A stretch of DNA of 64,000 bases, taken from positions 4,960,001-5,024,000 of the forward strand of contig NZ_OY762512.1 of NCBI RefSeq assembly GCF_963665995.1. Reading direction: 5' to 3'. This document shows, one piece after another, positions 7,529 through 45,613 of this stretch (positions are counted from its first letter, which is position 1; every line of letters begins with the position of its first letter). Source of the stretch: Pleurocapsa sp. FMAR1 (GTDB lineage: Bacteria; Cyanobacteriota; Cyanobacteriia; Cyanobacteriales; Xenococcaceae). The notes beneath the pieces are model-generated. The model saw only the letters and a program-made list of their open reading frames with translations, was not told where the DNA came from and made no database searches. Position numbers and translations under genes: made by a program.

Positions 7529-8515
7529 ATGCTAGCTACTACTAACCCAACCCAATTTAGCCCCATTACCACCAATAATTTATTAGTAGTTTTTGCTGAA
7601 TTTCTGGATATAGACGTGAGTGCGGGAGATGCCTCTACAGATACCCTCAAGACGTACACTCGGCAGCTACAGCAGTTTTTAAATTGGTGCGATCGCCGTC
7701 AGTTAAATCCAGTAATGGTAACAAAAGAAGACATTAAAAAGTATCGTCACTGGATGATTAAGCAAAAAGAATATAAACCAGCCACTATTGCCTTAAAGCT
7801 TGCCGTAGTGCGTCGTTTTTATCAGGCTGCGCTAGAAAAAGGCTTAATTTCCCTTAATCCTGCCACGGGAGTTAAACCACCACGAGAAAAACGCGATCCA
7901 GCCGAGAAAATTACTTATTTAGAGCAAACAGAAGTAGAAAGCCTTTTAGGTATTATTCCCAATGATGGCACTCTAAAATCTGCTAGGGATAAAGCCATGT
8001 TAGCAATTATGGCTTTAGAAGGACCTCGCACTGTTGAACTCCACCGTGCCGATATTGCCAGCTTGGTTAGACAGGGAGGAAATTTGGGTATTAGGGTAGA
8101 AGGTAAAAGAAGCATTCGCGTTGTTCCTCTTACTCCTGATATTGCCGATCTTTTGGTTGATTATCTACATCAACGAGAAACAAGAGGAGAAATCTTAAAA
8201 CCTACTAGACCATTATTTATTGCCACAGGTACTAATTCCATCGGCAATAGGATCTCCCGCCGTGGTATTAGGTTAGTAGTTGATAAATATTTAGAGCAAG
8301 CTTCTCTCAAGCATACTCCTGGAAGAACGGTTTCTGCCCATAGCCTCAGACATACGGCAGGTACATTAGCACTGCGATCGGGAGCCGAATTGCGCCAAGT
8401 ACAGGATTTATTAGGACATAGCGATCCGCGAACTACCTGTATTTACGCTCACGTAGCCGATCGCTGGGAGAATAATCCTGCATTAAAATTAAAGATTAAC
8501 ATTCCTTCTATTTGA
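7529..8515 (+). CDS. Tyrosine recombinase/integrase (XerC/D-like)
   Basis: 328 residues. The N-terminal SAM-like core-binding domain covers about 18-115 and the catalytic domain 125-320. Active-site residues are visible: R167 (EGPRTVEL), K193 (EGKRS), H271 and R274 (AHSLRHTAG), H297 (LLGHSDP) and nucleophile Y306 (CIYAHV). The protein therefore looks intact and could cut and rejoin DNA. No phage or transposon genes flank it. A dyad (7472-7496) and a 21-bp hairpin (7333-7377) lie upstream. It could be a housekeeping Xer-like enzyme or the remnant integrase of an element; the sequence alone does not decide. Confidence 0.9.
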   Translation: MLATTNPTQFSPITTNNLLVVFAEFLDIDVSAGDASTDTLKTYTRQLQQFLNWCDRRQLNPVMVTKEDIKKYRHWMIKQKEYKPATIALKLAVVRRFYQAALEKGLISLNPATGVKPPREKRDPAEKITYLEQTEVESLLGIIPNDGTLKSARDKAMLAIMALEGPRTVELHRADIASLVRQGGNLGIRVEGKRSIRVVPLTPDIADLLVDYLHQRETRGEILKPTRPLFIATGTNSIGNRISRRGIRLVVDKYLEQASLKHTPGRTVSAHSLRHTAGTLALRSGAELRQVQDLLGHSDPRTTCIYAHVADRWENNPALKLKINIPSI

Positions 8516-8536
8516 ATTTTTGAATTTTAAGACGAA

Positions 8537-9886
8537 CTAAACTTTGCTGTGTTCAGACTGTTGAATAATAGTTCGTGGCGGAATTGAAATTGGTTTTTGT
8601 TTTTTTCGACCTATTATTGCTAGCTTTTCTAAAGGCGTTAAACCAGACTCAACCTGTTTGGGTATACACTCGTATAAAATTTCAATCTGGTCATTGTTAA
8701 CAAAAATCTTAAAATAATTAAGTTGAAAAGAAGGATAGTAAACTGCTGGCAGAAATCGAAAAATAGAAGAAATCCGCTTCAGTTTTTTGAGCCAGCTACC
8801 AGTATTGAGGACATAGCGATCGCCTGAATCAGAGTCTTTACCGTCTATCTTAGTTAACGAAGGTTGATGAGTATGTCCGTATACAAAAGCAAAAACATCT
8901 TTGTCTTGTTCAAAAACCTGCTGTGCAGCTTGAAGATAGTAGCTTTGTTTGTGAATTTTTAGACCTTTTTTACCTTTATAGCCATATCGACGCAAAGTTT
9001 TTTTGATATCTCTAAACACAAACGATAAAGGAATTAATACTAAAATTAAGCTTCCAAGAAATAGCGTATCAATAAATAAAACTAGGTTTACCGTAAAATC
9101 TAAAGCTTTACCTGCAAAACCAAAATTGTGTAAAAATGCTAGCCAGGGTTTGGAGAAAAAGCCACTGGTAACAATTCCTGCTCGTTCTAAGATGGCACTA
9201 ATTAATATAAAAGCACTGACGCTGAGCAATAGCAAAAAAGGTAATAAAATCCAGCGCAACCAAAGACTCATCTCTTTGTAAAAATAATTAGAAAAAAACC
9301 AGTAGGGAATTTGCTCATTGGGATATACTGATTCGATATCTTTGAGCCAGCGATATTTGCCCAAGCGTGACCTTTCTACTAACCCATCTACAATTTGGCT
9401 AACAATATAGTAACCAATAGGAGTAACATGAGGATTACCGAAATCAGCAATTCGATTAAAGCTATCGTGCTGATTACCATGTTCGAGCCAGATGGTTTTT
9501 CCCTGTATCTGGCGAGTAATAACTTCTTTGGCTTCTAAATTAATATTGTACGCTTGAAGCGTTTGTTTAAATTCAGCATAACAAGCGAGTTCGTAATCAT
9601 GATTTCCTGGCAACAGAGTAATTTTGATGCTTTCACCTGTACGTTTAAACTGCTCAAACAATCTCGGATGTTGCTCAATAATAATTTCTAGTTTTTCTGT
9701 GGGTGAAGTGCGCGTCATCTCCCAAAAGCTAAAGGCATCACCGACGATAATTAACTCGGTAGAATTGGTTTTGCTTTCTAAAAGCTGCAAAAAATCAATT
9801 AATTCGGTTTCAAAATCACAAACTGTTAAATTTCCCTCACCACCAATGTGAAGGTCACTGATAAAATAATATTCTGGACTAATCAT
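8537..9886 (-). CDS. Membrane-inserted calcineurin-like metallophosphoesterase
   Basis: 449 residues. The metal-binding motifs are in canonical order: D11/H13 (SDLHIGG), D50 (GDAFSFW), GNHD (94-97), EHGNQHD (135-141) and GHTH (337-340). Between the fourth and fifth motifs lies an insertion with two hydrophobic helices (about 212-232 and 264-291), so the catalytic domain is split by a membrane hairpin. LpxH-like and UDP-diacylglucosamine hydrolases share the motifs but lack this insert. It is the last gene of a likely minus-strand cluster with sbcD and a small membrane protein. Substrate unknown. Confidence 0.8.
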   Translation of the reverse strand: MISPEYYFISDLHIGGEGNLTVCDFETELIDFLQLLESKTNSTELIIVGDAFSFWEMTRTSPTEKLEIIIEQHPRLFEQFKRTGESIKITLLPGNHDYELACYAEFKQTLQAYNINLEAKEVITRQIQGKTIWLEHGNQHDSFNRIADFGNPHVTPIGYYIVSQIVDGLVERSRLGKYRWLKDIESVYPNEQIPYWFFSNYFYKEMSLWLRWILLPFLLLLSVSAFILISAILERAGIVTSGFFSKPWLAFLHNFGFAGKALDFTVNLVLFIDTLFLGSLILVLIPLSFVFRDIKKTLRRYGYKGKKGLKIHKQSYYLQAAQQVFEQDKDVFAFVYGHTHQPSLTKIDGKDSDSGDRYVLNTGSWLKKLKRISSIFRFLPAVYYPSFQLNYFKIFVNNDQIEILYECIPKQVESGLTPLEKLAIIGRKKQKPISIPPRTIIQQSEHSKV

Positions 9887-26924: not shown

Positions 26925-27032
26925 ATGGTAAAAATTGTCAGTCGTCAATCATTAGGTAAACAAACCGTATACGATCTAGGTGTAGCCCAAGATCATAATT
27001 TTTTGCTTGCCAATGGCATGGTGGCATCTAAT
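26925..27032 (+). other. DnaE split intein, C-terminal fragment (IntC)
   Basis: 36 codons. VYDLGVAQDHNFLLANG (15-31) holds block F (the DHNF histidine). Block G is MVASN, with cyclising N36 followed by nucleophile C37 of the extein. The penultimate residue is serine, as in fast-splicing Npu-type DnaE inteins, instead of histidine. It assembles with the N-intein in trans and is excised from the polymerase. Confidence 0.95.
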
Positions 27033-28265
27033 TGCTTCAATAAATCTCATTCCACTGCTTATGCTTATGTAACTTATCAAACTGCCTACCTCAAAGCCAA
27101 CTATCCCGTAGAGTATATGTCGGCTTTGCTTACCGCTAGTAGCGGAAATCAGGAGAAAGTTGACAAATATCGGGAAAATTCCCAGAAAATGGGAATCAAG
27201 ATTTTACCTCCTGATATTAATCGCTCACAAGAAGACTTTACCCCTTTGGATGATCATCATATTCTTTTTGGTTTGTCGGCAGTCAAGAATTTAGGACAGG
27301 GTGCGATCGAGAATATTCTGATGGCAAGGAGTAGCGGTGAGTTTAAATCCTTGGCAGATTTTTGTGAGAGAGTAGAATTACGTACTGTTAATCGTCGAGC
27401 ATTGGAAACTTTAATTTACTGTGGTGCTTTTGATTTAGTACAGTCTAATCGTCGGCAGTTGATTAATGATATTGATGTATTGACATCTTGGGCGCAAAAA
27501 CGCCACAAAGAAAAAGCCAGTGGTCAACTTAATCTATTTGACATGATGAATAGTGGTGGCGAGTCAAAGTCTCAAGCTGCTTTTGAACAAGCACCTAGCA
27601 CTTCTAAAGTTGAAGATTATCCGCTACAGGAGAAACTACGTTTAGAAAAAGAATATATTGGTTTTTATATTAGCGATCATCCCCTCCAGGCAGTTTACCA
27701 AGCAGCACAAATTCTATCTCCTATAAGTCTAAGCGAATTATCGGAACAAAAAGCAAAAGAAAAAATTAGTGCAGTAGTCATGTTAAATTCTGTCCGCAAA
27801 ATTACAACTAAAAAAGGCGATCGCATGGCTTTTGTACAGATGGAAGACATTACAGGGGAAGCAGAGGGAACAATTTTTCCCAGTACTTACCAGGATTTAG
27901 AACCCTTATTAGCAGAAGGTAAGCAATTAATTGTTTGGGGGAAAGCACAACAGCGAAATGATAAATATCAGCTAATTATTGATGATGCTGAAGAAATAGA
28001 ACAAGTTAGAATGATTATGTTAGAAATTACTCCAGAGCAGGCTTTAGATCGGCTAAAAAGTAATTATTTAAAAAGAATCTTAGCAGAACAGACTCAAGAA
28101 CAAAATAAGTTTAAAATCCCTGTAATTGCTGCGATCGGTCAAGGAGAACAAAGGCAGTTTATTCGCTTTGGACAGAAATTTTGGGTGCAAAATGAATCCC
28201 AAGCTATGGCATCTTTACAAGAGGCAGGGTTCAAAGTTCACTGTACGCCCTTAGTTTCTCATTAA
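26925..28265 (+). CDS. dnaE: DNA polymerase III alpha subunit, C-terminal half with split C-intein
   Basis: 446 residues. The first 36 are a DnaE C-intein; the C-extein starts at C37-F38-N39 and continues KSHSTAYAYVTYQTAYLKA, the normal DnaE interior. The remaining 410 residues include the helix-hairpin-helix-containing fingers end, an OB-fold region (AVVMLNSVRKITTKKGDRMA) and the C-terminal domain. Alone it is inactive: it is joined by protein trans-splicing to the N-terminal half made from a distant dnaE-N/N-intein gene, absent here as expected. This is the arrangement known from Synechocystis and Nostoc. The 410-residue C-extein is of normal length. Confidence 0.95.
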   Translation: MVKIVSRQSLGKQTVYDLGVAQDHNFLLANGMVASNCFNKSHSTAYAYVTYQTAYLKANYPVEYMSALLTASSGNQEKVDKYRENSQKMGIKILPPDINRSQEDFTPLDDHHILFGLSAVKNLGQGAIENILMARSSGEFKSLADFCERVELRTVNRRALETLIYCGAFDLVQSNRRQLINDIDVLTSWAQKRHKEKASGQLNLFDMMNSGGESKSQAAFEQAPSTSKVEDYPLQEKLRLEKEYIGFYISDHPLQAVYQAAQILSPISLSELSEQKAKEKISAVVMLNSVRKITTKKGDRMAFVQMEDITGEAEGTIFPSTYQDLEPLLAEGKQLIVWGKAQQRNDKYQLIIDDAEEIEQVRMIMLEITPEQALDRLKSNYLKRILAEQTQEQNKFKIPVIAAIGQGEQRQFIRFGQKFWVQNESQAMASLQEAGFKVHCTPLVSH

Positions 28266-35648: not shown

Positions 35649-36227
35649 ATGACAATTAATTTGAGTAAAGGAGAAAGAATCTCCTTAGAAAAAGTTTCTC
35701 CAGGACTAAAAGAAATTTTTATCGGCTTAGGCTGGGATATCAATCCGACTGATACTGGTGGTGATTTTGATATTGATGCGTCAATCTTCCTCTTAGACAG
35801 TAGTGAAAAGCTGATCTCTGATAAACACTTCATTTTTTACAATAACCTTTCTAGTCCAGACTCAGAAAAGTCTGTGCAGCAAAGGGGCGATAATCGAACT
35901 GGCGCAGGGGAAGGAGATGATGAAATCATTGACATGAAGCTGAAGACTGTTCCTCCAGAAGTTGATAAAGTTGCGATCGCTGTAACCATTCATGAAGCGG
36001 ATAAACGTCAGCAAAACTTTGGTCAGGTAAGTAACGCCTTTGTACGTATTGTAAACTATGAAAACGAAGAGGAAATCATTCGCTACGATTTGACTGAAGA
36101 TTTTTCTGTGGAAACAGCCTTAATTATGGCAGAAATGTACCGTAAAGACGGCGAATGGCGTATGAATGCCGTTGGTGCAGGATATGAAGGCGGATTACAA
36201 GCTTTAGTAGAAAGATATCAAAAGTAG
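35649..36227 (+). CDS. terD: TerD-family stress protein (first of three)
   Basis: 192 residues, a single TerD domain. Conserved features are the acidic calcium-site pattern FDIDASIF (about 38-45), GDNRTGAGEGDDE (about 82-94), VAVTIHEA and RKDGEWRMNAVGAGY. TerD proteins bind Ca2+ and act in tellurite, phage and colicin resistance or general membrane stress, by unknown mechanism. It is about 80% alike to the next gene by eye, a recent duplication. First of a three-gene array. Confidence 0.9.
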   Translation: MTINLSKGERISLEKVSPGLKEIFIGLGWDINPTDTGGDFDIDASIFLLDSSEKLISDKHFIFYNNLSSPDSEKSVQQRGDNRTGAGEGDDEIIDMKLKTVPPEVDKVAIAVTIHEADKRQQNFGQVSNAFVRIVNYENEEEIIRYDLTEDFSVETALIMAEMYRKDGEWRMNAVGAGYEGGLQALVERYQK

Positions 36228-36349
36228 TATTTCAAGGACGAAAAGATGAAGGATGAAGAAATACTAGAAAAATTACTTCGTCTTTCTTCTTCTCTGTTTC
36301 TATCTGGTAGAGCAACTAATAACTAACAACTAATAACTAACAACTAAAT

Positions 36350-36925
36350 ATGGCAGTAAATCTTAGTAAAGGACAGCGTATATCTTTAGAAAAAGTCGCC
36401 CCAGGCTTAAGCGAAATTTTTGTGGGCTTGGGTTGGGATACTAATATTACCGACACGGGAAATGACTTTGATATTGATGCGTCAGTTTTTTTGGTAAACA
36501 GTAATGAAAAATTAATTTCTGACAATCACTTTATTTTTTATAACAATCTTGCCAGTCCTGATGCAAATAAGTCTGTAGAGCATTTAGGAGATAATCGAAC
36601 AGGTGCAGGTGAAGGAGACGATGAAGTAGTCAAGGTTAAACTCAAGCAAGTTCCTGAAGACATAAATAAAATAGTGATGACCGTTACGATTCACGAAGCG
36701 GAAAAGCGTCAACAGAATTTTGGTCAGGTACAAAATGCTTTTGTAAGAGTCGTAAATGCAGAAAATCAAGAAGAGGTGATACGTTATGACCTCTCAGAAG
36801 ATTTTTCTGTAGAAACTGCCCTGATTATGGCAGAACTTTATCGCAAGGATGGTGAGTGGCGCGTTAATGCTGTAGGTGCTGGTTATCAGGGTGGTTTAGA
36901 AGCATTGCTAAATCGTTATCAATAA
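36350..36925 (+). CDS. terD: TerD-family stress protein (second of three)
   Basis: 191 residues with the same motifs as its upstream neighbour: FDIDASVFLV, GDNRTGAGEGDDE and RKDGEWRVNAVGAGYQGG. The 122-base gap before it contains tandem AACTAATAACTAACAACTAA repeats just before the start. Probably made by tandem duplication and co-expressed. Confidence 0.9.
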   Translation: MAVNLSKGQRISLEKVAPGLSEIFVGLGWDTNITDTGNDFDIDASVFLVNSNEKLISDNHFIFYNNLASPDANKSVEHLGDNRTGAGEGDDEVVKVKLKQVPEDINKIVMTVTIHEAEKRQQNFGQVQNAFVRVVNAENQEEVIRYDLSEDFSVETALIMAELYRKDGEWRVNAVGAGYQGGLEALLNRYQ

Positions 36926-36964
36926 ATAATTGAAAACTTACAACTAACAATTAATAATTAAATA

Positions 36965-37555
36965 ATGGCAATCAATCTTACAAAAGGACAACGTATCTCT
37001 CTTACCAAAGAAGACCCCAGCCTCAAGCAAATGATGTGTGGTCTTGGTTGGGATGTTGCGCCAAAATCTGGCGGTTTTTTTGGAGGGAATAAACAATTCG
37101 ATCTTGATTCTTCGGTTCTTTGTTTAGATACAGACAAGAAGTTGACCGATGTTAAAAATATAGTTTACTTTGGTAATTTAAGACATAGCTCTAGCGCGAT
37201 CGCACATCAGGGAGACAACCTAACTGGTGCAGGGGAAGGAGACGACGAGGTAATTAATATCGATCTACCTTTAGTTCCCGCTAACATTGCTTATTTGGTA
37301 TTTGCCATCAACATCTATAAATGCGAACAGCGCAAGCAAGATTTTAGTATGGTAGATAATGCCTTTGTGCGTTTAGTCAACCGCCAAAGTAATCAAGAAT
37401 TAGCTCGCTATAATCTTTCTGGTTCAGAATATCAAGGCATGACGGGAATGATTCTCGCTGAAGTCTATCGCAAAGACGAAGAGTGGAAAATGGCAGCAGT
37501 GGGCAACGGGTTTAAGGTGTCTACTTTAGCTGATATTGCTAAAATTTATACTTGA
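36965..37555 (+). CDS. TerD-family protein, divergent third member
   Basis: 196 residues. TerD domain with FDLDSSVLCLDTDKK and GDNLTGAGEGDDE. It differs from the first two by an insertion SGGFFGGNKQ near residue 35, an FGNLRHSSSAIAHQ segment replacing NNLSSPDSEKSV, and an IYKCEQRKQDF helix. It resembles the TerX/TerE subgroup, so the array holds two kinds. The gap to the second gene is 39 bases. It converges with the dynamin-like gene. Confidence 0.88.
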   Translation: MAINLTKGQRISLTKEDPSLKQMMCGLGWDVAPKSGGFFGGNKQFDLDSSVLCLDTDKKLTDVKNIVYFGNLRHSSSAIAHQGDNLTGAGEGDDEVINIDLPLVPANIAYLVFAINIYKCEQRKQDFSMVDNAFVRLVNRQSNQELARYNLSGSEYQGMTGMILAEVYRKDEEWKMAAVGNGFKVSTLADIAKIYT

Positions 37556-39943: not shown

Positions 39944-42900
39944 CTAACTTAAATCACTATTAGTTAATGTAATATAACGAACTATGGAGTTCGGATCATT
40001 AATTAATTTTTGTTGGATATCATTCGGAGTATTAGGATTAGTTGCGACTGCATATCTTTCTAACCAATAAAGCGATCGCGATTTTTTAACTAATATTTTA
40101 GCTGGTATTTGAGGCTGTAATAAAGTAAGTAGTCGAGCAATATTTGGTTGGGAGTTTTTACTATATAAAGCCAGTACTTCTGATAAGCCTTGGGGATATT
40201 TTTTAAGATAGTTTTCGATTGCTATTTTGCGTACTCTTTTATCGCTATCCTTAATTAATTTAGCTAGTAAAACAAGCGAGATATTTTGATGGTTGGCTAC
40301 AGTCGATCTGATTATGTAGTCTTTATTATTAGAAAGGCAATTGAGTATATTTTCTGAAGCATTATTATGAGATGCAATCGCTTGCAACGTTTTGGCGTGA
40401 TTGATGTTAGTTTTATATTGTTGAATTCTGATAGTTTTGATTTGCTTTATAACCTCAGATACTTCATCTTTATTTGTTAGTAATGTTAGTAACTGCTCTA
40501 AAATATGCTGGGTAGCGTTGAGATTATTTGCTAAAGAGCTTATTATCGGAAGAGTCTGCAAACAGCGATATCTTAAATTATCACAATCTTCAGTTAGATA
40601 AGATATTTTGTTAGTAGTAATTTGTTCTAAAGCAGAAATGGGAGTATTGATATTACTAGCAACAGCAGCACTAACATAATGCCAATCTGTATTTGCTAGC
40701 TGCGCTAGCTCTTTTGCTGAAGTAGAATAACAAGCATTGTAATAAGCTTCTTTTACTTCTTCAATTAAAGAGGTTGGTATATTGGAATTTTCTCTTACTG
40801 TTTGACGTATTATATTATTAATATCTCCTATAAGCTCGGATAAAACATCTAAAGAAATATTAGGATGTTTTGCTACTTCTTTGCGCACTTCGCCACTAGG
40901 ATTAAAGGCTAAATTTTTTAAAACGCTTTGAGGAGTATGGGGATTATCGTAAATAGTCGTTCTTTTACTTCTATCGTTTTTATCTCGTGCTATTTTTTTT
41001 GCAATTTGTGGAGGTAGATTAGGATTTTGCAATAAATACCAATATAAATTAGAGTCTGTAGATAGCTGTTTTAAAATATTAATGGGAGTTCTAGGGTTTT
41101 GCGCTACACTCCCTCTAATCTGCTCACCTTTGTCTTCTCGTGCAAAGTATTCTAGAAAGTGTAAAGGTAAATTAGGATTTTCTACTAAAGCGATCGCTAA
41201 TTCTACGGCTATTTGACGACCTTGTATAATTGGAACATGATTAGCTTGTATCCATTTGTTTTTTTTGTCTTCAGTCATCCCAGCTAATTTTTCTAGCAAA
41301 TAAACGGGAGTGTTGGGGTTTTTAGCTATGGAGACGGGTACAGAATCATTAGTAATACCTTCTTGAGTGGAATAGTTAATTAATTCCTCTAACATTTCTA
41401 CGGTAGTGTTAGGATTTACCGCAATTCCATCCCAAGCACCTGAGTAACCATATCCCATAATATTTTTGAGAATACTAACAGGTGTTTTCGGATTTTTCGT
41501 TACACCCCTTTGTACTAACGCATATTGACTAGTACTCAATTCCTCTAAAATACTCAAAGGCATATTAGGTTGTTGTGCTATTTCTTCTAGAGCATACATT
41601 CCACAATTCTTTATTTCTTCTGACAGTTGCTCTAAAATGTGTTCGGGCGTATTGGAGTTTTTAATTACAGCTATATAAATAGCCCGAATAGTTTTTGTTG
41701 CTAAATACTCTAAAGTAGAGATAGACGTATTAGGATGAGCAGCAATTTCTTGTAGGATTTTACTATCCGACACCTTAGCTATTTGTTCTAAAATATTAGC
41801 TGAAATATCAGGTTTTCTTACTATTTTTTGTAGAGTAGATGTATCGAGATTAATAATTTCTGTTGATAATTGCTCTAAAATATTTTTGGGAGTATTAGGA
41901 TTGCCAAGAAGATTAATAAAAATATTGCGATCGCCTTCAGTAGCCAAATCTTCTAAGATACGAACTGGTGTATTGGGATTACCAGCGATCGCACTCATGA
42001 TTTTAGTATTTGGAATTGTTGCCAAATCTTCCACAATATTTACGGGCGTGTTCGAGTTTTTGGCAATATTTTCTAGTTGAAAAATAGCAAGGTTGCGAGT
42101 TTTACTATTTTTATCTTTGGCTAAAATTAATAGTTTTTCTGTCGGAATATCTAAGTTAACGATCGCAGAATTAGATTGCTTGAGTAAATTTAGTTTTTCT
42201 TTGATTTTTTGTGGAGTGTTAGGATTTTGGATCAGTGCTTCTTGTACTTCGGGATTATCTTTTGTTGCTAAAATCTCCAATGTACTGATGGGAGTATTAG
42301 GATTAGCTGCAACCGCACTTAAAACATTATATTGATAATAATCAGAGCGTTGTGATAAATGTTTTAGCAGATCACTAGGAGTATAGGAATTTTTAGCAAT
42401 AAATAAACAGATATATTCATCAGTATCTCTAGCTAATTGTTTGAGAATATCTATTGGAATATTAGATGCAGATACAGCAAGATCGACTTCATAAATAGAA
42501 TTATTTTCTTGCACTAATCTTTCTATAATAGATTCGGGTATTAAGCCTAATTGAGCTATATTTCTACGAACATCGAAATCGGTAGATCGAATTAAATTGA
42601 TAATTTCTTTTTCGACAATATTCTCCCAGTCTTTAGGAATTTTATCGTCATAATTAATATGCAAGCTAGCAGCCTGAGATATTTTGCAATTGTTATGTCG
42701 AACTAATTTATCTAAAATACTTTTAGGGGTATGGGGATGATTAGCTACAGCTAGTAAGACTTTATTATTCGATCGCGTTGCAGCAATTTCTAATGCTTCT
42801 GGGGATAAGTCATCTCCGCGAAACAAACTAGTGAATATATCTTTAATCTTGTCTTCTGTGTCATCTTCCGTGAGGTTATTTTGTTCTAAATTATTAACCG

Positions 42901-45613
42901 CAGCATCCCTAACTATTTGATTACCATCGCGGGTTAGTTGTTCTACAATTTGACGAGGAGTATTACTATTTTGGGCGATCGCATATCTTTCTAACCAAAT
43001 ATGAGAAGCATTATTTTTAATTAAAAACTGTTTGGGTGTTAGGGGATGGAAGAAAGCTATTAAACGACTCCAAGTAGGTGTAGAATGTCGGGCGTATTTG
43101 GTTAAATATATCGATGCAGTTTTAATATCGCGATCTAATAAGCTTTTAATTGCCAGTTTTCTCAGGCGAGAAGTTTTATCTGCTGCTAATTCTTCTAATC
43201 TCTCAATTGGGAAACTAGGATTATTGATCGCAACTTTAACTACCTTTGTCTCTTCATCCCTTAATAAATTATCTAATAAAGCAACGGGAGTATTAATATT
43301 ACTAGCAACAGCAACCCTAATTGCGATCGCATTTTCTTCTAAAAGCTGTTCTAAAATATTTGGAGAAGTATTTTTATGGGAAGCAACAGCAAGTTTAATT
43401 ACTAACCACTGACTGTCAACCAAACTATCTATAGTAGCTGTATCGCTATCAGGGTTATTAACTAAATTCCACTGATAAATAAAATCTGTAACTACTGGAT
43501 CGTTTCTTTGTATCAGGCGATCAACTGCAAGATTGCGAATGCAACCATTATTATCTTGAATTAGTATTTCTAAAGCCTTCAAAGAGACGTTATGATTTTT
43601 AGCAACTAGTTCTTTTACCTGCCAATATTGGCTAGTTGCTAATTGCTCTAATATATGTGCTGAAAGATTTTTCAATCTTGCTAAAGTGGCTTGTATTTCT
43701 AATTTATCTATTTCTGCCAATAAAGAAAGTAACTCTTCAGTACAGTAAAACTCTGTAAGTAGTTTTTGAGCTATCTGATAGCTTGATTCATTGTTTAAAT
43801 TAGTTATATCTTCTTTAACAACTCTTTCTAAAATATCTAGAGAAATATTAGGATTACAGATTACAGCATTTTTTACTTGCTGTAACTCGTCAACAGCTAA
43901 AATGTTTAAAATCTCTTCATTGCTATTAATATTTCTCCCAACATTAATACGTACTTGTGTAGATTTATCTGTGGCCAATTGTTTTAAAATACTTATAGGT
44001 ATAAAAGATTGGCAAGCTACCCGACTTCGAGCGTAGTCATCTTCACTACCAGCTAATTTTTGAAGAATTTCAACTGGAGTATTTTCGTTCAAAACATAAA
44101 GACGATAACTCCAATTATTACGGCTAATATTTTGAACTACATCATCTAACTTTTCTATCTTCAGACTATTCAAATAAGAATTATATACAACTCCCATTTC
44201 TGTAGATAAAATTCTCATTCTATAAATACCGTCAGGTGCATTTTTGCGATGGGGAATTATATTATTAGCAATGATAATATCTGAGTTTTTGTTGGCTGCT
44301 TCGGAAGTATCTTCTAAACGTCTCTCTGCAACATCTCTAATTTCAGCATCTTTATCTTTAAGTAACTCATGTAAAATATTTTCGGAAGTACTAAAATTTT
44401 GCGCCACAGCCCAACGTACTTCCCAATAACTATCTTTAACTAACTCTTGCAAAGTATCGATGGAAGTCTTCAAATTAAAAGCAATAGCTAACCTTAACTG
44501 CCATTCCGAAGCCTTAGCAAAACTAGCCAAAATGTCTTCAGGAGTTTTACTATTTCGCGCTATCTGCAAGCGAATTTCTAAATCCTTACTTGTTGCTAAC
44601 TCTCTTAAATTCTCTACGTCAATATCTAATTTATTGACTGCTTGATGTTGGCGATAATGTTCTTGAATAGTATCAATTGATGTTCTAGGATGACTTAGGG
44701 CTAATAACCTCACCTCCTCCGATTCATAGCCTATTAACTGTTCCAAAATATGACTTGGTGTATTGGGATGTTGAACAGCAAGCTTATAAAAATTATCGCG
44801 ATCGCATTTATCTTCTAGATCTATGTACTGGCATAATTGAGCTAAAACTTCGGAAGAAGTATCATTATTATTCGCCAATTTAAATTTAGTATCTGTATGA
44901 AAAATAGGAAGAATCCAATCTGGGACTATATCCAAAAATAGTAGTTGTTTTAGTAACTCTCTCTCTCCATAACTATATTCATATCTATCTTTTTCTATAT
45001 CTGCAACAACAACAGCATTAAATAATATCTCTTCTAGGGATTTATTATTTTTATCTCGCCCATTAATATGAAGTTTCACCCCTTCCACCACTTCGGGAAA
45101 CTTACTTTTACTCAGCTTTTCTAAAACAGCGGTAGGAATATTCTCGTGTCTCAAAATTGCCAACAAAGCTTTTTTATCTTGACTCCCTGCCACCCATTCC
45201 AAAAAACAAATAGGTAGTCGATCTTGTTTCAATAAATGTAATAAAGACCTAGAAGAAAGCTGTAATAAAAAATTAGGATTATGTTTAATCGAATCTACAA
45301 ATCCACTATTATTCAATACCGTCTGGGGGAACTGCCTAATTAATTTTAATAATATCTGGAACGGCGTATTAAAATTACTGGCAATATTCCGACGAGTAAT
45401 ATAATCTCCCGTTACAACCAAATCCCTCAACAAATTCCCATCTATACTAGGATTAGTCGCCACAACTCTAGCTAATTCAATACTTTCCGATGCTAAGGCA
45501 CGTAAAGTCTCAATTGACGTATCTACTTCTCTAGCTTGTTGCGAGGGATTATTCATCTGTACACTCGAAATTAACAATAAAACTATTGTACTAATGTATT
45601 TATCAAATCGCAT
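39944..45613 (-). CDS. Giant LRV-repeat (leucine-rich repeat variant) protein
   Basis: 1889 residues built almost wholly of about 24-residue helical units of the pattern NPNTPVSILEELA...VRxAVA, the LRV solenoid; more than 60 units are visible. A non-repeat module (TKYARHSTP...SRLIAFFHPLTPKQ...HIWLERYAIA) occurs at about 835-885 and a second version (SRSLYWLERYAVATNPNTP) at about 1810-1855, close to the C-terminus. Known LRV proteins are mostly under 1000 residues, so this looks like a fused pair. No N-terminal iron-sulphur cysteine cluster as in the Azotobacter prototype. An alternative start at 45556 would remove a short hydrophobic stretch. Function unknown; a binding scaffold is likely. 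Confidence 0.85.
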   Translation of the reverse strand: MRFDKYISTIVLLLISSVQMNNPSQQAREVDTSIETLRALASESIELARVVATNPSIDGNLLRDLVVTGDYITRRNIASNFNTPFQILLKLIRQFPQTVLNNSGFVDSIKHNPNFLLQLSSRSLLHLLKQDRLPICFLEWVAGSQDKKALLAILRHENIPTAVLEKLSKSKFPEVVEGVKLHINGRDKNNKSLEEILFNAVVVADIEKDRYEYSYGERELLKQLLFLDIVPDWILPIFHTDTKFKLANNNDTSSEVLAQLCQYIDLEDKCDRDNFYKLAVQHPNTPSHILEQLIGYESEEVRLLALSHPRTSIDTIQEHYRQHQAVNKLDIDVENLRELATSKDLEIRLQIARNSKTPEDILASFAKASEWQLRLAIAFNLKTSIDTLQELVKDSYWEVRWAVAQNFSTSENILHELLKDKDAEIRDVAERRLEDTSEAANKNSDIIIANNIIPHRKNAPDGIYRMRILSTEMGVVYNSYLNSLKIEKLDDVVQNISRNNWSYRLYVLNENTPVEILQKLAGSEDDYARSRVACQSFIPISILKQLATDKSTQVRINVGRNINSNEEILNILAVDELQQVKNAVICNPNISLDILERVVKEDITNLNNESSYQIAQKLLTEFYCTEELLSLLAEIDKLEIQATLARLKNLSAHILEQLATSQYWQVKELVAKNHNVSLKALEILIQDNNGCIRNLAVDRLIQRNDPVVTDFIYQWNLVNNPDSDTATIDSLVDSQWLVIKLAVASHKNTSPNILEQLLEENAIAIRVAVASNINTPVALLDNLLRDEETKVVKVAINNPSFPIERLEELAADKTSRLRKLAIKSLLDRDIKTASIYLTKYARHSTPTWSRLIAFFHPLTPKQFLIKNNASHIWLERYAIAQNSNTPRQIVEQLTRDGNQIVRDAAVNNLEQNNLTEDDTEDKIKDIFTSLFRGDDLSPEALEIAATRSNNKVLLAVANHPHTPKSILDKLVRHNNCKISQAASLHINYDDKIPKDWENIVEKEIINLIRSTDFDVRRNIAQLGLIPESIIERLVQENNSIYEVDLAVSASNIPIDILKQLARDTDEYICLFIAKNSYTPSDLLKHLSQRSDYYQYNVLSAVAANPNTPISTLEILATKDNPEVQEALIQNPNTPQKIKEKLNLLKQSNSAIVNLDIPTEKLLILAKDKNSKTRNLAIFQLENIAKNSNTPVNIVEDLATIPNTKIMSAIAGNPNTPVRILEDLATEGDRNIFINLLGNPNTPKNILEQLSTEIINLDTSTLQKIVRKPDISANILEQIAKVSDSKILQEIAAHPNTSISTLEYLATKTIRAIYIAVIKNSNTPEHILEQLSEEIKNCGMYALEEIAQQPNMPLSILEELSTSQYALVQRGVTKNPKTPVSILKNIMGYGYSGAWDGIAVNPNTTVEMLEELINYSTQEGITNDSVPVSIAKNPNTPVYLLEKLAGMTEDKKNKWIQANHVPIIQGRQIAVELAIALVENPNLPLHFLEYFAREDKGEQIRGSVAQNPRTPINILKQLSTDSNLYWYLLQNPNLPPQIAKKIARDKNDRSKRTTIYDNPHTPQSVLKNLAFNPSGEVRKEVAKHPNISLDVLSELIGDINNIIRQTVRENSNIPTSLIEEVKEAYYNACYSTSAKELAQLANTDWHYVSAAVASNINTPISALEQITTNKISYLTEDCDNLRYRCLQTLPIISSLANNLNATQHILEQLLTLLTNKDEVSEVIKQIKTIRIQQYKTNINHAKTLQAIASHNNASENILNCLSNNKDYIIRSTVANHQNISLVLLAKLIKDSDKRVRKIAIENYLKKYPQGLSEVLALYSKNSQPNIARLLTLLQPQIPAKILVKKSRSLYWLERYAVATNPNTPNDIQQKLINDPNSIVRYITLTNSDLS

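What the first reader, a model, noticed from the sequence alone, without database searches (positions are those of the whole stretch)
26925..27035. Split DnaE intein with serine before the splice asparagine
The gene opens with a 36-residue C-intein, block F DHNF and splice junction VASN then CFN. The polymerase is therefore made by protein trans-splicing from two loci. The penultimate Ser is as in the fast Npu DnaE intein; other substitutions in the body (GKQTVYDLGVAQDHN) make it a natural variant between Ssp and Npu types.
Basis: partly seen in the sequence, partly recalled or inferred. Interest (0 to 1): 0.7.

Follow-up and report, generated by a model that had tools for sequence, protein, structure and literature searches.

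The report
Ordinary cyanobacterial split DnaE intein
This cyanobacterium encodes its main DNA polymerase in two distant genes whose protein halves are predicted to be stitched together by a split intein, which is a well-known arrangement in cyanobacteria.

Summary
Window 26925-28265 (+) is dnaE-C; its first 36 codons (26925-27032) are a DnaE C-intein ending VASN|CFN. The partner was found: dnaE-N at G000:C1:1935746-1938487 (minus, about 3.05 Mb away) ends in a 113-residue N-intein after FAEY. In the single-contig, 99.88%-complete genome the DnaE palm, finger and HHH_6 families each have one match above cut-off, divided between the two genes; no full-length dnaE was found. Two contiguous, intein-free orthologues read straight through the predicted ligation point, FAEY-CFNKSHS. 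Serine before the splice asparagine is the common state: 68 of 78 named loci, 22 of 24 same-family genomes. So this is a new member of a known kind, of low interest. Splicing was not tested. A more unusual feature lies outside the window: the 5' end of dnaE-N is duplicated around a PIN-type toxin-antitoxin-like pair here, and around other cargo (ParE-like or YoeB pairs, Uma2, an unnamed ORF) in some relatives, with repeat ends at or near GCGATC.

The parts
26925..27032 (+). C-intein (IntC) of the split DnaE intein, 36 codons, block F DHNF, ends VASN
   Evidence: TIGR01443 over cut-off; solved DnaE intein chains matched; compared position by position with 102 other loci
27033..28262 (+). C-extein: C-terminal 410 residues of DNA polymerase III alpha, beginning Cys+1 Phe+2 Asn+3
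   Evidence: NF005616 726 bits; lengths
27192..27461 (+). HHH_6 helix-hairpin-helix domain of DnaE (residues 90-179)
   Evidence: PF14579 109 bits, cut-off 25.6; the only match at E <= 0.001 in the genome
27792..27995 (+). OB-fold domain of DnaE (residues 290-357)
   Evidence: PF01336 40.8 bits, cut-off 27
28263..28265 (+). stop codon of dnaE-C
   Evidence: The partner gene dnaE-N lies outside the window at G000:C1:1935746-1938487, minus strand

Best explanation
The gene is dnaE-C of a naturally split DnaE (cyanobacterial split DnaE intein, a small splicing domain without homing endonuclease). DnaE-N (793-residue N-extein plus 113-residue IntN) and DnaE-C (36-residue IntC plus 410-residue C-extein) are made from two genes about 3.05 Mb apart on opposite strands. 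IntN and IntC associate and form the splicing domain. Cys1 attacks the peptide bond after Tyr-1, the N-extein is transferred to Cys+1, and Asn36 of IntC cyclises and releases the intein. The result is a continuous polymerase of about 1203 residues joined ...FAEY-CFNKSHS.... Shown here: both halves, the motifs, no other copy found, and the exact match of the predicted junction to intein-free orthologues. Inferred (from the established mechanism of class 1 inteins): association, splicing and rate. The rate is probably fast, because IntN carries K70, M75 and M81 and IntC the penultimate Ser, as in Npu.
For: Family and motif matches. Own-genome searches: one PF07733 match and one PF14579 match at E <= 0.001, and one PF17657 match over cut-off, in two different genes. 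IntN is 73 of 100 identical to Npu IntN, with T69-K70-D71-H72, M75 and M81. The junction matches the contiguous orthologues L119 and L120. In the same GTDB family, 26 of 27 genomes (own included) have a DnaE-C match and 26 of 27 a DnaE-N match; 24 other family genomes show an IntC of the same form.
Against: None against the identity. No expression, splicing or mass-spectrometry data exist here. The statement that K70, M75, M81 and the penultimate Ser speed up splicing is recalled (work on the Cfa consensus intein); two literature searches listed no paper that I could use as a source for it.
Confidence: 0.97

Rival explanations
1. The intein halves are decayed, and the polymerase works as a two-subunit complex without ligation.
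For: No direct splicing evidence is available here. The IntN tail varies in length (IntN 100-121 residues in 16 distinct sequences, own included), so part of it is not under constraint.
Against: The splice residues are intact, and the stretch TKDHK plus M75 and M81 is identical in 16 of 16 distinct IntN sequences that the pattern found (27 loci gave one, 18 did not). IntC positions H24 and F26 are the same in 95 of 95 distinct relatives (N36 too, but the search pattern required it). Decay without constraint would not keep these.
Confidence: 0.02
2. The C-intein start is a chance resemblance, and dnaE-C is a 3' fragment of a broken dnaE.
For: A 36-residue fragment scores below the Pfam Intein_splicing cut-off.
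Against: TIGR01443 is over its cut-off, an IntC stands before the same CFNKSHS in 78 of 80 named loci, and the partner IntN is found.
Confidence: 0.01

Closest known systems
Npu DnaE split intein (Nostoc punctiforme; PDB 2keq, 4qfq, 4lx3, 5ol7)
   Same: Same host gene, same kind of split, IntN 73 of 100 and IntC 23 of 35 identical, penultimate Ser, K70, M75, M81. That these PDB entries are Npu is recalled, apart from 2keq, which PMC2664965 names as NpuDnaE
   Different: IntN 113 residues against the 102 given for Npu in PMC2664965; substitutions in the body of IntC, of which T14, L18 and M32 are less common states (4, 8 and 9 of 95)
Ssp DnaE split intein (Synechocystis PCC 6803; PDB 1zde, 5ol5; assignment recalled)
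   Same: Same gene and kind of split; IntC 21 of 35 identical
   Different: Ssp has Ala before the splice position, and TSDHR in block B where this intein has TKDHK (both seen in the alignments)
Contiguous, intein-free cyanobacterial DnaE (Stenomitos frigidus ULC18, L119; Phormidesmis priestleyi ULC007, L120)
   Same: Same polymerase; reads FAEY-CFNKSHS through the splice point
   Different: One gene, no intein at this site

Membership tests
Cyanobacterial split DnaE intein | C-intein of about 36 residues at the start of a DnaE C-terminal half, with blocks F and G, terminal Asn and Cys+1 | tested here: met
Cyanobacterial split DnaE intein | Separate dnaE-N gene ending in an N-intein with Cys1 and block B TxxH | tested here: met
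   G000:C1:1935746-1938487 minus; FAEY|CLSYDT..., TKDH at 69-72
Cyanobacterial split DnaE intein | No contiguous dnaE in the genome | tested here: met
   Own-genome searches with PF07733, PF14579 and PF17657; genome 99.88% complete, one contig
Cyanobacterial split DnaE intein | Insertion site identical to Ssp and Npu (FAEY|CFN) | tested here: met
   Extein junction read from both halves and matched to contiguous orthologues; that Ssp and Npu use this site is recalled
Cyanobacterial split DnaE intein | Closest solved relatives are DnaE split inteins | tested here: met
   For IntC the first 14 of 17 chains (E < 1e-6) are DnaE inteins, some deposited under the name 'Nucleic acid binding, OB-fold, tRNA/helicase-type', which I take to be the Npu DnaE C-half; for IntN the first 14 of 22 chains are, and the other 8 are PI-MtuI/RecA-type inteins (one called only 'Intein') at E > 1e-6
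Cyanobacterial split DnaE intein | Trans-splicing activity | not testable with these tools
   Needs expression of both halves
Fast (Npu-like) splicer | K70, M75, M81 and penultimate Ser | tested here: met
   Residues present. That these residues set the speed is recalled; the rate itself is not testable here

The most novel reading that the evidence does not exclude
The most novel reading concerns the partner gene, not the intein. The start of dnaE-N may be a recurrent landing site for small toxin-antitoxin or Uma2 cassettes. A cassette would arrive with its own copy of the dnaE-N promoter and first 35-48 codons, probably joined at GCGATC/HIP1-type palindromes. It would replace the 5' end of the essential gene and leave the old 5' end as a truncated copy upstream. 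The direct repeats would let the cassette be lost or exchanged by homologous recombination.
Probability: 0.4. Interest if true: 0.4.

Novelty: new member of a known kind. Interest (0 to 1): 0.12.

Why it matters
It adds one more complete, intact split DnaE intein pair whose residues predict fast splicing, from a lineage of Pleurocapsales-like cyanobacteria. It could be a natural variant for the protein-ligation toolbox, but it changes no understanding. The duplicated 5' end of dnaE-N could matter more: it would show how toxin-antitoxin or Uma2 genes lodge beside an essential replication gene; I recognised no integrase among the ORFs listed in the inserts, though not every ORF was searched against families.

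Tried and rejected
Looked for a second polymerase or a full-length dnaE: none found. Looked for other inteins that could cross-react: one contiguous intein in dnaB, and two weak TIGR01443 hits in frames of 32 and 45 codons taken as chance, one of them just over the cut-off (17.1 against 15.6 bits). Searched the literature for the accelerator residues: nothing usable listed. Looked for viral contigs carrying the start of dnaE-N as a possible carrier of the duplicated 5' end: 18 loci, best 76% identity over 70 residues, not examined further. Rfam (gathering threshold) on the dnaE-N region and on the IntC locus: no family. PADLOC on ten ORFs from the insert regions: the two Uma2 proteins match PDC-S03, the own small ORF has weak matches (best E 7e-5), one G111 ORF a very weak one (0.007), the other six none. 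Structure prediction was not used; it would not change the verdict.

In the side finding, one ancestral duplication followed by exchange of cargo is not excluded: gene conversion between repeats could hide a single origin. The reverse reading for the G018/G017 pair (loss of the cassette in G017 by recombination between repeats) is equally possible.

Full report
What is there. The ORF at 26925-28265 (+) encodes 446 residues beginning MVKIVSRQSLGKQTVYDLGVAQDHNFLLANGMVASN and continuing CFNKSHSTAYAY. The first 36 codons (26925-27032) are a DnaE C-intein. TIGR01443 matches over its cut-off, and NF005616 (PRK07373, 'DNA polymerase III subunit alpha') covers residues 1-445 with 726 bits against a cut-off of 646. 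A phmmer search of the first 47 residues against PDB chains gives DnaE inteins for the first 14 of 17 rows. The rest of the protein carries HHH_6 and OB-fold domains.

The partner. The genome is one contig of 5,429,540 bases, 99.88% complete; the window is C1:4960001-5024000. PF07733 (DnaE palm) has one match at E <= 0.001, at C1:1936703-1937545 minus, in a 914-residue frame. PF17657 (fingers) has one match over its cut-off, in that same frame (a second, at 13.4 bits, is below cut-off in a 40-residue frame with a stop). PF14579 has one match, in dnaE-C. No contiguous dnaE was therefore found. From its probable ATG (MSFVG) DnaE-N is 906 residues: 793 of N-extein ending VLFAEY, then a 113-residue IntN beginning CLSYDTE. 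dnaE-N and dnaE-C are on opposite strands, 3.05 Mb apart one way round and about 2.38 Mb the other if the contig is circular. Intein_splicing finds three places in the genome at E <= 1: a contiguous intein in dnaB, over the cut-off, and the dnaE-N and dnaE-C halves, each below it.

The product. Of 80 named loci encoding relatives of DnaE-C, 78 carry an IntC in front of CFNKSHS, and two do not (L119, Stenomitos frigidus ULC18; L120, Phormidesmis priestleyi ULC007). The 80 are the best of 574 confirmed stretches, so this is the part nearest to the query. The two exceptions are contiguous polymerases that read FAEY-CFNKSHS exactly where the window's two halves would be joined. The predicted spliced product of 1203 residues aligns with the L119 polymerase through the junction, 60% identity over 949 columns. 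This is the best evidence, short of an experiment, for the ligation product.

The serine and the 'type'. Penultimate Ser occurs in 68 of 78 named loci and Ala in 10; in the same GTDB family it is Ser in 22 of 24 and Ala in 2. Rows dropped before the family count were L013 (own), L039 (second match of G018), and L036 and L037 (fragments without the start). Some named loci appear to be the same genomes as family loci (identical IntC); 95 distinct IntC sequences remain. The pattern required Asn before CFNKSHS, so that Asn is invariant by construction. The Ser is the majority state. IntC is 23 of 35 identical to Npu and 21 of 35 to Ssp; these two are 19 of 35 identical to each other. Rarer states in this IntC are T14 (4 of 95), L18 (8 of 95) and M32 (9 of 95). 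IntN is 73 of 100 identical to Npu IntN. K70, M75 and M81 are the same as in Npu and in 16 of 16 distinct IntN sequences (own included) that the pattern found; 18 of the 45 loci scanned gave none. That these residues and the penultimate Ser set splicing speed is recalled (searches listed no usable source). In PMC2664965 (passages) the authors state that the N-terminal part of Npu is responsible for its higher efficiency and that variation between the last 15-16 residues of the C-inteins has little influence. PMC4031507 (passages) describes the mechanism and gives a half-life of 1 min or less for Npu; [quoted passage not shown] 2003; not held), neither of which I read.

Relatives. The nearest named DnaE-C relatives are Waterburya agarophytonicola KI4 (85%) and a Myxosarcina MAG (84%). 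The window is therefore inferred to come from a Pleurocapsales-like cyanobacterium; it is not identified further.

Verdict on the finding. Splicing was not tested.

Side finding at the partner gene. A tblastn row showed a second, partial copy of the start of DnaE-N in this genome at C1:1939362-1939499. It is a 222-bp direct repeat (94.6% identity) of the dnaE-N 5' flank and first 107 coding bases (35 codons), about 1 kb upstream and truncated there. Between the copies lies a pair of ORFs, a PIN-domain protein (PF01850, 58 bits) and a small ORF overlapping its start, which looks like a toxin-antitoxin pair (the small ORF has no Pfam match). Same-genus genomes G018, G016 and G023 have such a truncated copy too, with other cargo: Uma2 in G018, a ParE-like pair in G016, and a ParE-like pair, a YoeB/YefM pair and other ORFs in G023. 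G015 has a 48-bp remnant and a Uma2 gene, and G111 from another family has a 225-column repeat around an ORF without a Pfam match over cut-off. The other eight same-genus genomes showed no such copy, some of them on short contigs.

How common it is. In a search of 291 genomes of the order (drawn evenly from a larger group) with the first 42 residues, 278 matched and 12 had two matches. Of these 12, five are such upstream truncated copies (G000, G016, G018, G023, G111). Two (G021, G204) have a second gene start on another contig. In five (G063, G119, G220, G254, G256) the second match is weak (E 2e-6 to 9e-4) and lies elsewhere in the genome, so it is not such a copy. The G015 remnant was found only by DNA comparison, and shorter remnants elsewhere could be missed.

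Where the repeats end. In the functional copy the repeat ends at coding base 107 (own), 113 (G016), 121 (G111), 144 (G015), 145 (G023) and 146 (G018); GCGATC stands at coding bases 103-108 in all six and at 139-144 in G015, G023 and G018. So five ends lie within about five bases of a GCGATC and G111's about 13 beyond. The left ends lie close to a GCGATCGC-like sequence roughly 100-120 bases before the ATG in own, G018 and G023, but not in G016 or G111. In G018 the truncated copy's 5' flank is 98% identical to that of G017, against 63% for the functional G018 flank; G017 is also the genome closest to G018 in the body of the gene (94.0% over codons 50-380). So either the functional 5' end was replaced in G018, or G017 lost a cassette by recombination between the repeats. 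In this genome the two copies are each other's closest relatives (flank 93%, codons 98%), so here a local duplication explains the data as well. [quoted passage not shown] HIP1 is frequent (88 in the 64-kb window), and no chance calculation was made, so the coincidence is suggestive only. Two literature searches (12 of 17 papers listed, 12 of 53 listed) showed no title or abstract start describing this arrangement at dnaE; that is a limited search.

Noticed in passing
L003 (G000:C1:1930000-1944000): truncated copy 9370-9591, functional copy 8358-8577, both minus; ORFs 8682-8933 and 8930-9349 plus: The dnaE-N 5' flank and first 35 codons are duplicated around a PIN-type toxin-antitoxin-like pair; similar truncated copies around different cargo occur in G016, G018, G023, G111 and as a remnant in G015.
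   Followed up: partly
G000:C1:1679774-1680355 plus (L004 337-2274): A contiguous intein of about 195 residues lies in dnaB (PF14890 107 bits; the 645-residue ORF also matches DnaB and DnaB_C).
   Followed up: partly
L162 (G015), L159 (G014), L160 (G019), L161 (G021): dnaE-N frames of several same-genus genomes are 1319-1766 codons long, with breaks in the match near residue 387 and, in G015, also near residue 760; in G015 the sequence shows extra inteins there, in the others this is inferred from the breaks. The window's own dnaE-N lacks them.
   Followed up: partly
L038/L039 (G018:C25:3263-4596), probably also L070: dnaE-C of G018 is read in two frames overlapping near residues 296-329, so the frame is broken there; this may be an assembly error in a draft genome.
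   Followed up: no
window 35649-37555 (+): Three tandem TerD-domain genes (192, 191 and 196 residues; PF02342 235-275 bits); the first two are 72% identical in DNA.
   Followed up: no
window 39944-45613 (-): A 1889-residue protein with many leucine-rich-variant and HEAT repeat matches.
   Followed up: no
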